Origin: an uncultured Clostridia bacterium
GTDB taxonomy: Bacteria; Bacillota; Clostridia; Oscillospirales; Oscillospiraceae
Length of the DNA: 64,000 nt
Direction: 5' to 3'
Assembly (NCBI GenBank): GCA_947165595.1
Contig: CAMVAV010000002.1
Coordinates: 1-64,000, forward strand
Part shown: positions 3,501 to 49,283 of the stretch, piece by piece
Layout: every line of letters begins with the position of its first letter
Position numbering within the stretch: position 1 is the first letter of the stretch
Made by a program: the position numbers and the translations under genes
Notes under the pieces: generated by a model
Databases searched by the model: none
What the model saw: only the letters and a program-made list of their open reading frames with translations
What the model was told of the DNA's origin: nothing

Positions 3501-5303
3501 GATGCGTTTCATCTGCGGATGGTCCTGCGCCAGCGGGCGCTGCGCCTCCTGCAAAAACAGCAGCGCCGCCGTTTGCAGCCGCGTGTCGCCGCAGAGGGCA
3601 AAGTACGCGGCAAACTCGATCAGCTTCGCGCGCGTCTGGTCGCCGTAGTGGTGGGGCGGCAGGCTCTGGATCGCGTCGAGCAGGGTGAACGCCGTGTCCG
3701 GCTCCTTCTCCTCCGGCTTGTCGTAATAGGTCAACAGCACGCCGACGAAGCGCGGCAGCGTCTCCCGCCGTCCGTAGCGCAGCATGGCCGCCACGACGAG
3801 CTTTAGCGTGTAGCCGATGTGCGAGCGCTGCTGGGCGGTGGTCTTGTGGTCGGGGTTGATGATCTTGTCGAGGTACTCCGCCCAGAGGGTGAAGGGCACC
3901 TCCTCCGCGGGGTCGGAGGACGCGTCCTCCGGCAGGCGCTTGCGGTAGACGAGGTGGAACTTCGCGATGATCTGCCCGATCAGCCCCGCCGCCTGACGGC
4001 GGATATCGCCCTCGCGGTGGGTCAGCAGCTCGTAGAGGAAGGCGAGCGCCTGCGTCTTCTGCCGCGCGGACAGATAGGTGCAGTACGCCTCGAAGATGTT
4101 GAGGTAGACGCGCAGCTGCTTCCAGTCGCGGCTGGCGCGCGCCGCCTCGATGATGTTGCCGAAGCGCTGCTCGCCGGAGAGCTGATGCATCAGGCGCAGA
4201 TGGTGCTCCATGGAGAGCAGCATCAGCCGCTCGACGGACTCCTCCGGCGTCATCAGGGCGGGGTCCTTCGCCTCCGCGCTCACGCGCGGCGCGCCGGTCA
4301 GGCCGATGTCCGCGCCGAGCGAGCGGAGGTAGCGCTCAAAGTCCTGCAGCCGGCTGTAGACCAGCTCATAGCGGCGGCGCTTTACCGCGTCGACGTTTTC
4401 GAGCTTCCCGAGGATCACGTCAAAGGCGTCGGCAAGGGAGAAGATCTCCGTCACCTCCCGCCCCTGCGCGTCGCGGCTCTGCTTGCAGCGGACGTCGGCG
4501 TAGATGAGGCACAGCGACTCGGCGGAGAGCGCGTCCAGCTCCAGGTCCCAGGTCGAATGGTTCGAGGCGATGTGGCTGACGGCGTACATCCCGCGCTTTT
4601 CCAGCCAGTACCCCGTGTAGTAGTAGTGCAGGTGCGGCACCGCCTCGCCGGGACGGCAGCCGTATTTGCCGAGGTCGTGCGCCGCGGCGGCGGCGGATAT
4701 GAGTGCGAGGTCGATCTCCTCCCCCGCCTCGCGGACGCCGCGCGCGACGGTCAGCGCGATGTGGTGCACGCCCGCGATATGGCTCAGCGTGCGGTAGGGC
4801 GTCACCTCGTCGCCGAGGCGCATCAGCTCGTAGATGAACTCCCCTCGGAAGGCGGCGAGGAAGCGCTTGTACTCCTCCGCGTGGTCGCAGTCCTCATACT
4901 CCTCCGGTGCGAGAAAGGCGAAGTCGTGCATCGGGTCGAAGGGCAGCGTCCGGCGCTCCCGCTCCAGCAGGAGCTGCAAAACCGTCAAAAACGTCAGCGC
5001 CCCGCGCTCGAAGCCGTAGGCGTCCGGCGCAAAGCGTCCCTGCGGATACATCCGGGCGCGGATAAAATCGTAGCAGAACGCGCACCAGCCCCGCTCCGGC
5101 GCTTTTCCGAGCAGCGGGGCGCAGAGCTCGGCGACGGCGGCGCAGGACAGCCGCTCCCGGATCGGAAGCAGGGCCTCCAGCCGCACGTCGAGCCCCGCCT
5201 CGCGCAGGCTGCGCAGCGCCGCGCGGCGGTCCCGCTCCAGCCCTCTGTCACAAAGCGCGCCCGAAAGCGCGTCCAGCAGCTCGCGCACCGCCTTTTTGCT
5301 CAT
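579..5303 (-). CDS. Giant multidomain protein: HD-type domain, helical repeat region, NadD-like nucleotidyltransferase, GNAT-like region, phosphoribosyltransferase-like domain
   Basis: 1574-aa ORF; SAAAAAHDLGKYG (HD), KIAFFPGTFDPFTLSHKG (nucleotidyltransferase GTFDPxxxxH motif), PVILVDDVMHPG (PRTase-like) in one frame. Confidence 0.85.
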   Translation of the reverse strand: MSKKAVRELLDALSGALCDRGLERDRRAALRSLREAGLDVRLEALLPIRERLSCAAVAELCAPLLGKAPERGWCAFCYDFIRARMYPQGRFAPDAYGFERGALTFLTVLQLLLERERRTLPFDPMHDFAFLAPEEYEDCDHAEEYKRFLAAFRGEFIYELMRLGDEVTPYRTLSHIAGVHHIALTVARGVREAGEEIDLALISAAAAAHDLGKYGCRPGEAVPHLHYYYTGYWLEKRGMYAVSHIASNHSTWDLELDALSAESLCLIYADVRCKQSRDAQGREVTEIFSLADAFDVILGKLENVDAVKRRRYELVYSRLQDFERYLRSLGADIGLTGAPRVSAEAKDPALMTPEESVERLMLLSMEHHLRLMHQLSGEQRFGNIIEAARASRDWKQLRVYLNIFEAYCTYLSARQKTQALAFLYELLTHREGDIRRQAAGLIGQIIAKFHLVYRKRLPEDASSDPAEEVPFTLWAEYLDKIINPDHKTTAQQRSHIGYTLKLVVAAMLRYGRRETLPRFVGVLLTYYDKPEEKEPDTAFTLLDAIQSLPPHHYGDQTRAKLIEFAAYFALCGDTRLQTAALLFLQEAQRPLAQDHPQMKRIAELAARGSAREGLTLQFLRYRILRRAGEDVSAYREVFEQDVTAEIFLDNLKTATPWVNKVVGVGILRDQAERSGKDNILHICTHFSNLIKVSERVVVRHAAGQALLDVLPLLRREQRNEVVVELGKGIELGQYAISKYIPDYLGQTALLLYPSELDEQVLWLKTLLGSPTDSAVAGALRTIGVMLRHYEEYRGRFVEPAARYTERWHELIGLLLQGLAHYREAVRQEALLVFGQLFDTGALEQEERLFTLCCRKLLFLVDTAPDADALTFFYRASALAHIDRFLTLHKLERGAFRFERPRKIAFFPGTFDPFTLSHKGIVREIREMGFEVYLAVDEFSWSKKPQPHLLRRQIINMSVAGDFHVYLFPSDIPVNIANPADLRRLRTIFGGRRLYLVVGADVIAGASAYRREPEPWSVHSLNHIVFRRPDQTGLPDREALRITGDLMELRLPPELEDISSTRIRENVDQNRDISHFIDPIIQDFIYQNGLYLRDSHEKPLLTAADICFEWLTAPYGEPDGPELAEAAREGDEMLALRRGGRRAGFLTWRYLGATELFGALGDSSLSDRVRLRAAGKSLLVTGVRARGDDAQLLLSEVLARSLQEDCVYALCRPRGGVTAELEELLLRQGFSRREGDAPLLEVDMRSPSVLIRNLETTIQEPLAHDERVLSAIENGHRRLQRALTGLYPGSLVLTLSSDVIHRRLLERITAFNRVPDTPVVPRRLGECMCVPFGKMLRGRMIPNTVTKTIHTDKVFEPDLRSSRIEAFPNYPTIPRQIRIIKSFDRPVILVDDVMHPGIRIRALDPLLRREGIDIRMVFVGLLSGHGRDLMREQGYPVDGAYFVPTLRQWFIESTLYPFIGGNTVRRAEAPVPGLLPGINHILPYAAPTFESECSGRAVYALSRCCLESAREVMLALERAYREQYARNLTLSRLSEAVILPLCPDKGACLRYDPSLAASVYLENDLEQLMRGQDYA

Positions 5304-47746: not shown

Positions 47747-48205
47747 ATGATGATGCTGACTCTGACTCTGATTCTGATGGCGGTTCTTGGCTCCGCGCTG
47801 GCGCTGGGCGCGCTCTATATCGGCGCGATGCTGTTCGGGTATCTGCTGCTTGCCATCGGTCGGTGGCAGATGTTCGAGAAGATGGGCCAGCCCGGCTGGA
47901 AGGGCTTCATCCCCATTTACTCCGACTATATTCTGTATGGCTCGTGCTGGGAAACCGCTTTTTTCTGGGCCGCGCTTGCCGCCTCCGCCGTCTGCGCGAC
48001 GGGAGGCGCGGACTCGCGCAGTCTCCTGGTTTCGCTCGCCGGCATCGTCGCCGCCGTGATGGAAGCGGGTCTTGCGCTTCGTATTTCCCGCTCCTTCGGG
48101 CACGGCGTCCCGTTCGCCCTCGGCCTTATGCTCCTGAATCCGCTCTTTGTCCTCTATCTGGGCTTCGGCCCGGATCGGTACAGGGGGCTCAGCTGGGGCT
48201 GCTGA
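47747..48205 (+). CDS. Small integral membrane protein (DUF5684-like)
   Basis: Multiple TM segments; MGQPGWKGFIPIYSDYILYGSCW motif. Confidence 0.7.
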   Translation: MMMLTLTLILMAVLGSALALGALYIGAMLFGYLLLAIGRWQMFEKMGQPGWKGFIPIYSDYILYGSCWETAFFWAALAASAVCATGGADSRSLLVSLAGIVAAVMEAGLALRISRSFGHGVPFALGLMLLNPLFVLYLGFGPDRYRGLSWGC

Positions 48206-48307: not shown

Positions 48308-48511
48308 TATACTTGATTGATAAGGGCGAGATCCCGGCGAAGCGGGACTTCTCCGAAGTAATACTACTTTCAAATTAAAAGATTTAATTTGAAAGGCGCG
48401 TGCTGCGCACGCTGGTTTTGCGCCAAAGGCGCAAAACACGTCTCATGCGAAATTTAACGCCGCTGCGCGGCTATAAAACGATTTTCAATCGTTTTAATAA
48501 ATTTCAGTATA
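48308..48511. repeat. Multi-hairpin intergenic element (six hairpins, nested three-way junction)
   Basis: TTTCAAATTAAA-AGA-TTTAATTTGAAA; GCGTGC-TGC-GCACGC; GTTTTGCGCC-AAA-GGCGCAAAAC; GCCGC-TGC-GCGGC; AAAACGATT-TTC-AATCGTTTT; outer GAAATTTA...TAAATTTC; TCCCG-gcgaag-CGGGA. Confidence 0.85.
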
Positions 48512-48530: not shown

Positions 48531-49283
48531 ATGAGCGTTGAAAACGGCGAATGGATCATGCGCGGGCTGGACTGGAACGATCCCTTCCGCATCCGATCCC
48601 GGCGCGAGCTGGTCAGCTGGATCAATGAAGTCGGGTTTCTGCCGCTGTTCGGCAATGAGATCAAGGGCTTTTCCGTCGAGGAGCATGTGTCTCCGAGCTT
48701 CTGGTGGACGGGCGACACGGAGCAGGACCCGTGGGAATGGCGGGAGATCATCGCGCGCAGCCGCGAGGCCGCCTACGGCAAGTTCTTCGGCGGGAAGGCA
48801 GGCTTCATCAGCCTTGCGTGGCTGCCGTACTTTGCCAACTGCCGCAGGGATGGGTACGACTTCGATTCGCTCTACGACGAGGGGCTTGCGAACGCGCGCA
48901 GCAAACGCATCATGGACGTCTTCGCCGATCCGGAGCATGACGGCGCGTGGAAGAGCGACCCGATCTTCTCCACGGAGCTCAAAAAGCTCGCGGGCTTCGG
49001 CAAGGAAGGCGCAAAGAATTTCCCGGGCATTCTGACCGAACTCCAGATGTGGCTCTACCTCGTGGTCGTGGACTTCAGGCGCCGGCAGAACAAGCGCGGC
49101 GGCGAGTACGGCATGCCGGTTTCGATCCTGCTCCCGCCCGAAGCCGTGTGGGGCTATGACGCCGTGACCGCCGCTTACGGAGAAGCGCCGGAGGTATCGG
49201 CGGAGCGGATCGCCGAGCAGATTCGGAAGCACTGGCCCGCCGCGGAGGAAAAGGCCGTCCGGAGAATGGTCGGAAAGCGGTGA
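48531..49283 (+). CDS. AlkZ-related (YcaQ-like) protein
   Basis: WINEVGFLPLFGNEIKGFSVEEHVSPSFWWTGDTEQDPWEWREIIARSREAAYGKFFGGKAGFISLAWLPYFANCRRDGYDFDSLYDEG. Confidence 0.7.
   Translation: MSVENGEWIMRGLDWNDPFRIRSRRELVSWINEVGFLPLFGNEIKGFSVEEHVSPSFWWTGDTEQDPWEWREIIARSREAAYGKFFGGKAGFISLAWLPYFANCRRDGYDFDSLYDEGLANARSKRIMDVFADPEHDGAWKSDPIFSTELKKLAGFGKEGAKNFPGILTELQMWLYLVVVDFRRRQNKRGGEYGMPVSILLPPEAVWGYDAVTAAYGEAPEVSAERIAEQIRKHWPAAEEKAVRRMVGKR

What the first reader, a model, noticed from the sequence alone, without database searches (positions are those of the whole stretch)
48308..48511. Dense multi-hairpin intergenic element with triloops and a three-way junction
Six hairpins occur in about 200 bp. 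Five have perfect stems with 3-nt loops: TTTCAAATTAAA/TTTAATTTGAAA, GCGTGC/GCACGC, GTTTTGCGCC/GGCGCAAAAC, GCCGC/GCGGC and AAAACGATT/AATCGTTTT. The last two are enclosed by GAAATTTA/TAAATTTC, and TATACT/AGTATA may close the whole. AT-rich and GC-rich hairpins alternate. This is too elaborate for one terminator and could be a REP/MITE-like element, a structured RNA or a recombination substrate upstream of an AlkZ-related gene.
Basis: seen in the sequence. Interest (0 to 1): 0.7.

Follow-up and report, generated by a model that had tools for sequence, protein, structure and literature searches.

The report
Multi-hairpin mini transposon in gut Clostridia
The hairpin cluster is a 148-base mobile DNA element without genes of its own, present in about 40 almost identical copies in this bacterium and in many diverged versions in its relatives; each copy sits between duplicated TNA target triplets, and its DNA hairpins are kept perfect while their letters change, moved by an enzyme that was not found.

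Summary
The hairpins are real and far beyond chance, but the unit is window 48362-48509 (148 bp), not 48308-48511. It is a dispersed, non-autonomous mobile element: about 40 copies in its own genome, nearly all 100% identical, each flanked by a 3-bp target duplication TNA (32 of 33 full copies match on both sides). An insertion inside a gene aligns without gaps to intact homologues once the element and one triplet are left out. Diverged relatives fill many Oscillospiraceae/Clostridia MAGs from rumen and gut (over 75 copies in one), all with the same plan: TAC(T) end, hairpin, internal hairpins, invariant linker CGTCTCATRCG, three-way junction, AGTA end. Stems covary massively (50 of 56 pairs change on both sides) but almost without G·T or A·C intermediates, so they are perfect DNA palindromes, not a structured RNA. 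Three-base loops are mostly TNC, that is GNA on the bottom strand. Each end is a palindromic copy of an imperfect ~19-bp terminal repeat. No autonomous copy, Y1 transposase or IS5-type transposase was found in the richest genomes. Best reading: a MITE-like family moved in trans by a DDE transposase with IS1031/IS5-like target choice, elaborated into folded DNA. New variant of a known kind.

The parts
48362..48509 (+). The whole 148-bp element (TACTACT...TTCAGTA)
   Evidence: Borders from about 40 aligned copies with unrelated flanks; CM match 1-150
48359..48361 (.). Left copy of the 3-bp target duplication, TAA
   Evidence: TNA matches on both sides in 32 of 33 full copies of this genome
48510..48512 (.). 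Right copy of the 3-bp target duplication, TAA
   Evidence: as above
48362..48380 (+). Left imperfect terminal repeat TACTACTTTCAAATTAAAA
   Evidence: one pattern TNATACTN{7,8}ATNAAAA finds both ends of the copies with 0-1 control hits per genome
48491..48509 (-). Right imperfect terminal repeat, bottom strand TACTGAAATTTATTAAAAC
48367..48395 (+). H1: left terminal repeat folded on its own inverted copy (13 bp, loop AGA)
   Evidence: fold; all 13 pairs change on both sides in relatives
48398..48412 (+). H2: GCGTGC-TGC-GCACGC
   Evidence: loop TNC (bottom strand GNA) with free N
48415..48437 (+). H3: GTTTTGCGCC-AAA-GGCGCAAAAC
   Evidence: replaced by other hairpins in relatives
48439..48449 (+). 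Linker CGTCTCATGCG, the most conserved stretch of the family
   Evidence: hosts an extra hairpin in L150/L151
48449..48505 (+). P4 (48449-48456 with 48498-48505), the outer stem of the three-way junction; with H6 it is the right terminal repeat folded on itself
   Evidence: relatives L077 and L078 lack H5 and form one plain hairpin
48459..48471 (+). H5: GCCGC-TGC-GCGGC, set into the right-end hairpin
   Evidence: 99.7% of cells paired
48474..48496 (+). H6: TAAAACGATT-TTC-AATCGTTTTA
   Evidence: 98.4% of cells paired

Best explanation
A MITE-like, non-autonomous DNA transposon family. SHOWN: it moves as a defined unit, makes a 3-bp TNA target duplication, has amplified recently in this genome, and has spread and diverged in one bacterial family. 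SHOWN: each end is an imperfect ~19-bp terminal repeat followed by its own inverted copy, so each end is a palindrome; GC-rich hairpins and the linker CGTCTCATRCG lie between, and one hairpin (H5) is set into the right-end palindrome to make the three-way junction. INFERRED: a DDE transposase supplied in trans, most likely with IS1031/IS5-type target choice, cuts at the terminal repeats and joins them to staggered TNA targets. INFERRED: the palindromes are kept perfect at the DNA level, by template-switch correction between arms plus selection for hairpins or cruciforms, probably with a bias to bottom-strand folding (GNA loops), which may help synapsis or replication of the element.
For: About 40 copies, nearly all 100% identical, with unrelated flanks. 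TSDs: 32/33 in this genome (14 TAA, 7 TCA, 6 TGA, 5 TTA) and 57 of 68 elements elsewhere with TNA on both sides. Joined flanks of the copy in G000:C54 align without gaps across the junction to homologues in relatives (five of six homologous loci gap-free, the sixth with one gap far from it). An element nested in the H1 of another, duplicating TGA (L123). Single-hairpin elements of about 40-50 bp, several with matching duplications. Both ends answer to one pattern. Covariation 0.360 against 0.026-0.048 for slid partners; G.T 7, A.C 13, Watson-Crick 1992. IS1031-group elements are reported to choose TNA and make 3-bp repeats (PMC12016507).
Against: No autonomous copy was found. The element-rich genomes G000, G006 and G008 have no DDE_Tnp_1 match, and DDE_Tnp_4 was seen only weakly in G003; MAGs often lose multi-copy transposases, so this is weak evidence. 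Terminal repeats differ much between subfamilies, which is odd for a transposase reading duplex sequence. A plain MITE needs neither the linker nor a conserved interior, yet the linker is the best conserved part.
Confidence: 0.72

Rival explanations
1. A transposon whose enzyme recognises the folded single strand (bottom strand), as Y1 transposases or integron integrases do, but which leaves a 3-bp duplication: a transposition route not described before.
For: Sequence of the ends diverges while the fold is kept; 36 of 65 distinct 3-nt loops are TNC, i.e. GNA on the bottom strand with free N, against 3 of the mirror type; invariant internal linker.
Against: No Y1_Tnp in any element-rich genome; no link between orientation and GC skew (23/40; 8/19 where skew exceeds 0.03), though skew is weak here; a clean 3-bp duplication points to a staggered double-strand cut. 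DNA folding energy is equal on the two strands, but the model may not score GNA loops.
Confidence: 0.15
2. A structured RNA (sRNA, UTR element, ribozyme or guide-like RNA) spread by transposition and selected for its RNA fold.
For: Strong conserved fold and covariation; RNA z -6.6; the linker can be read as CGU-CUCAU-RCG with R = A or G, which in RNA keeps a pair.
Against: G.T pairs almost absent and no commoner than A.C; one-sided changes are few; no Rfam match; no clear orientation relative to genes (11:7); hairpins are freely swapped between subfamilies.
Confidence: 0.06
3. The fold carries no function: template switching between inverted arms keeps any palindrome perfect, and the elements are plain MITEs whose hairpins are a by-product of replication.
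For: Paired changes far above independence within one genome (5 double changes against about 0.1 expected from 17 single) and almost no intermediates, as template switching predicts (PMC8794818).
Against: Template switching does not explain the conserved order of hairpins, the invariant linker, or the one-sided TNC loops, since loop inversion should balance TNC and GNA (36:3; not corrected for shared descent).
Confidence: 0.25

Closest known systems
Bacterial MITEs (RUP, NEMIS, ERIC, Nezha, EFAR and others; PMC3733652)
   Same: Short, gene-less, multi-copy, mostly intergenic, terminal repeats, target duplication, presumed trans mobilisation
   Different: Ends are palindromes of the terminal repeat; several further hairpins, a three-way junction and an invariant 11-nt linker; terminal sequence diverges while the fold is kept
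IS1031 subgroup of the IS5 family (e.g. ISLrh; PMC12016507)
   Same: Target TNA, exactly 3-bp duplication
   Different: ISLrh ends (GAACCTGTCTAGTATCT) are not these ends; no transposase of this kind found in G000, G006 or G008
REP elements, GTAG and CGTC types, with RAYT transposases (PMC3733652)
   Same: Perfect short-loop palindromes in many intergenic copies; CGTC REPs also lack a known dedicated transposase; our linker begins with CGTC
   Different: REPs are 20-40 bp single hairpins; these are composite with a 3-bp duplication; no Y1 transposase in the element-rich genomes
Integron attC sites and IS200/IS605 ends
   Same: DNA hairpins with conserved fold and little conserved sequence, one strand favoured (general knowledge)
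   Different: Precise 3-bp duplication, no Y1 transposase; integrase not tested

Membership tests
MITE | 70-300 bp, no coding capacity | tested here: met
   148 bp; full relatives mostly about 120-184 bp, lengths not kept in multiples of three; single-hairpin forms are shorter
MITE | Terminal inverted repeats of 15-30 bp | tested here: met
   Imperfect ~19 bp; one pattern hits both ends; weak in the window copy, clear in e.g. L217
MITE | Target site duplication | tested here: met
   TNA, 32/33 and 57/68; interrupted gene aligned to homologues
MITE | Autonomous partner with the same ends | tested here: not met
   None found in G000, G003, G006, G009 nor among the listed ends of G008/G010 (list cut, not exhaustive). 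Not every accepted MITE has a known partner.
IS1031/IS5-derived | 3-bp TNA duplication | tested here: met
   rule from PMC12016507
IS1031/IS5-derived | IS5-type DDE transposase in the same genome | tested here: not met
   PF01609 and PF13586 absent from G000; PF01609 also from G006 and G008; PF13359 absent there; genomes are incomplete MAGs
REP/RAYT and IS200/IS605 | Y1 (HUH) transposase | tested here: not met
   PF01797 absent from G000, G003, G006, G008, G009, G010
REP/RAYT and IS200/IS605 | No target duplication | tested here: not met
   3-bp duplication present; that these families lack one is from general knowledge
Structured RNA family | Match to a known family | tested here: not met
Structured RNA family | Covariation with G.U intermediates on one strand | tested here: not met
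   Covariation yes, G.T no commoner than A.C
Structured RNA family | Transcript | not testable with these tools
   no RNA-seq available
Integron attC | Tyrosine integrase IntI acting on the folded bottom strand | not tested
   no search made

The most novel reading that the evidence does not exclude
A transposon family recognised by the shape of its folded single strand rather than by end sequence, yet integrating with a 3-bp TNA duplication: a new transposition mechanism, with the linker CGTCTCATRCG as the enzyme's anchor.
Probability: 0.15. Interest if true: 0.85.

Novelty: new variant of a known kind. Interest (0 to 1): 0.58.

Why it matters
It is a large element family, apparently undescribed in the library searched, that litters genomes of uncultured rumen and gut Clostridia and often sits at contig ends, so it bears on how well these genomes assemble. 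It shows RNA-like covariation at a rate that would pass for a textbook structured RNA yet arises at the DNA level: a caution for RNA discovery by covariation, and a natural system to separate template-switch correction from selection on hairpins. Its transposase is unknown.

Tried and rejected
Structured RNA: rejected on the pair census and Rfam. RAYT/IS200-type mobilisation: no Y1_Tnp in element-rich genomes. Lagging-strand insertion: no orientation bias, low power. Phage or plasmid carriage: no match in phages, plasmids or viral contigs; the two viral pattern hits (L282, L283) lie in sequence without the linker or ends and look like chance. Autonomous element from unpaired ends: candidates turned out to be contig ends, fragments, nested copies or single hairpins. 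PF01609 loci of the genus carry no such ends. The L053 DNA match in G032 shows no element architecture and was discarded. Literature searches for a prior description of such a family found none; the library lacks most subscription journals.

Full report
What is there. The five triloop hairpins and the three-way junction are in the sequence as described. Folded by itself the 148-nt unit has z = -9.1 and -9.5 with DNA parameters on the two strands, and -6.6 with RNA parameters. The unit is 48362-48509. It lies between a DUF5684 gene (47747-48205) and an AlkZ-related gene (48531-49283). The outer pair is TACT/AGTA at its very ends; the TATACT at 48308 is outside it.

Copies and borders. The genome holding the window (2.83 Mb, 165 contigs, 78% complete) gives 40 BLAST stretches, of which 33 are full-length, nearly all 100% identical over 150 bp, with unrelated flanks; the partial ones lie at contig ends, and the end pattern adds a few more ends. 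In every full copy the flanks read T-N-A on both sides, and in 32 of 33 the N is the same: 14 TAA, 7 TCA, 6 TGA, 5 TTA, one TGA/TAA. That is a 3-bp target duplication. Elsewhere 57 of 68 elements with TNA on both sides match (10 more could not be scored at one end); mismatches are frequent in G010, where recombination between copies or misassembly is likely (inference).

Empty site. In G000:C54 the element interrupts a gene. With the flanks joined at one TCA, the reading frame aligns across the junction to homologous loci in the same genus, five of six without any gap and the sixth with one gap near the start, at 56-64% identity. In G010:C257 an element sits inside H1 of another, duplicating TGA.

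Relatives. A covariance model from seven members finds many more: 39 matches in G000, 39 in G008, 77 in G010, 22 in G006, few in G003, G009, G002 and G014, none in ten other species of the genus. In 396 genomes of the order only three genera of the same family have matches (strict filters). None in viral contigs, phages or plasmids.

Architecture. All share a TAC(T) end, H1, variable internal hairpins, the linker CGTCTCATRCG, usually the P4/H5/H6 junction, and an AGTA end. Both ends answer to one pattern, TNATACTN{7,8}ATNAAAA, with almost no control hits. Each terminal repeat is followed by its own inverted copy: H1 is the left one; P4 plus H6 is the right one with H5 set into it. Relatives without H5 (L077, L078) are plain hairpins there. 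Single-hairpin elements of about 40-50 bp, made of just two terminal repeats, exist with matching duplications (L307, L314). Internal hairpins are exchanged between subfamilies, and L150/L151 have an additional hairpin in the linker.

DNA, not RNA. On the 71 distinct rows of A4, 91.3% of cells pair; 50 of 56 pairs have a change on both sides; 606 cells change on both sides against 157 in shuffles; the covariation score is 0.360 against 0.026-0.048 for slid partners. The alignment was fitted to the model and the rows are related, which inflates these numbers. In a symmetric census over 53 distinct elements there are 1992 Watson-Crick pairs, 7 G.T, 13 A.C and 40 other mismatches. RNA-selected stems normally hold clearly more G.U than A.C (general knowledge); these do not, so the palindromes are kept at the DNA level. 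Within G010 paired positions change less than unpaired ones, and double changes exceed the product of single rates (5 against about 0.1). Template switching predicts one-step paired changes (PMC8794818). It does not predict the loop bias: 36 of 65 distinct 3-nt loops are TNC, which is GNA on the bottom strand, against 3 of the reverse type. GNA triloops are known from general knowledge to be very stable in DNA. This bias is not corrected for shared ancestry.

Place in the genome. 26 of 33 full copies are intergenic although about 86% of the flanking DNA is called coding by a simple codon-usage gene caller; none lies between divergent genes. Orientation relative to tandem genes is 11:7 and to GC skew 23 of 40. 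This fits tolerated insertions rather than a gene-regulatory role.

Enzyme. A 3-bp TNA duplication is the stated rule of the IS1031 group of IS5 (PMC12016507). No PF01609 or PF13586 match is found in G000, no PF01609 in G006 or G008, and PF13359 only weakly in G003. No Y1_Tnp in element-rich genomes. The enzyme is therefore unknown; absence from fragmented MAGs is weak evidence. An IS1031-like DDE enzyme is the most likely, by target choice alone.

Verdict. A new, elaborate MITE-like family with palindromic ends. Mobility and target duplication are shown; the enzyme and the purpose of the fold are inferred.

Noticed in passing
L123 (G010:C257:500-2800), 1138-1286: An element inserted in the H1 stem of another, duplicating TGA; further nested copies in L306 and L317.
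   Followed up: partly
L265 around 3157; L307 near 1160; L309 near 486; L314 near 470; L272 near 3945: Single-hairpin elements of about 40-50 bp made of two terminal repeats only, several with matching duplications; possibly the minimal mobile unit.
   Followed up: partly
L150 1049-1231, L151 979-1162, L271 near 120: Elements with an additional ~50-nt hairpin domain inserted in the linker CGTC/TCATACG.
   Followed up: no
L024 (G000:C54), element at 3916-4065: Insertion interrupts a membrane-protein-like gene that is intact in relatives.
   Followed up: yes
G000:C2:66484-66631, about 2.5 kb beyond the window end: A second identical copy close to the window on the same contig.
   Followed up: no
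L152 1004-1149 and L153 993-1141 (G000:C23, C7): Two copies of other subfamilies in the same genome, so more than one subfamily has invaded it.
   Followed up: partly
L116, L118, L120, L127, L129 (G010): Copies with unequal TNA triplets, suggesting recombination between copies or misassembly.
   Followed up: no
many contig ends in G000, G006, G010: Contigs often begin or end inside an element, so the family probably breaks MAG assembly and true copy numbers are higher.
   Followed up: partly
window 48333-48346: Small CCCG/CGGG hairpin just upstream of the element, in flanking DNA and not in other copies.
   Followed up: no
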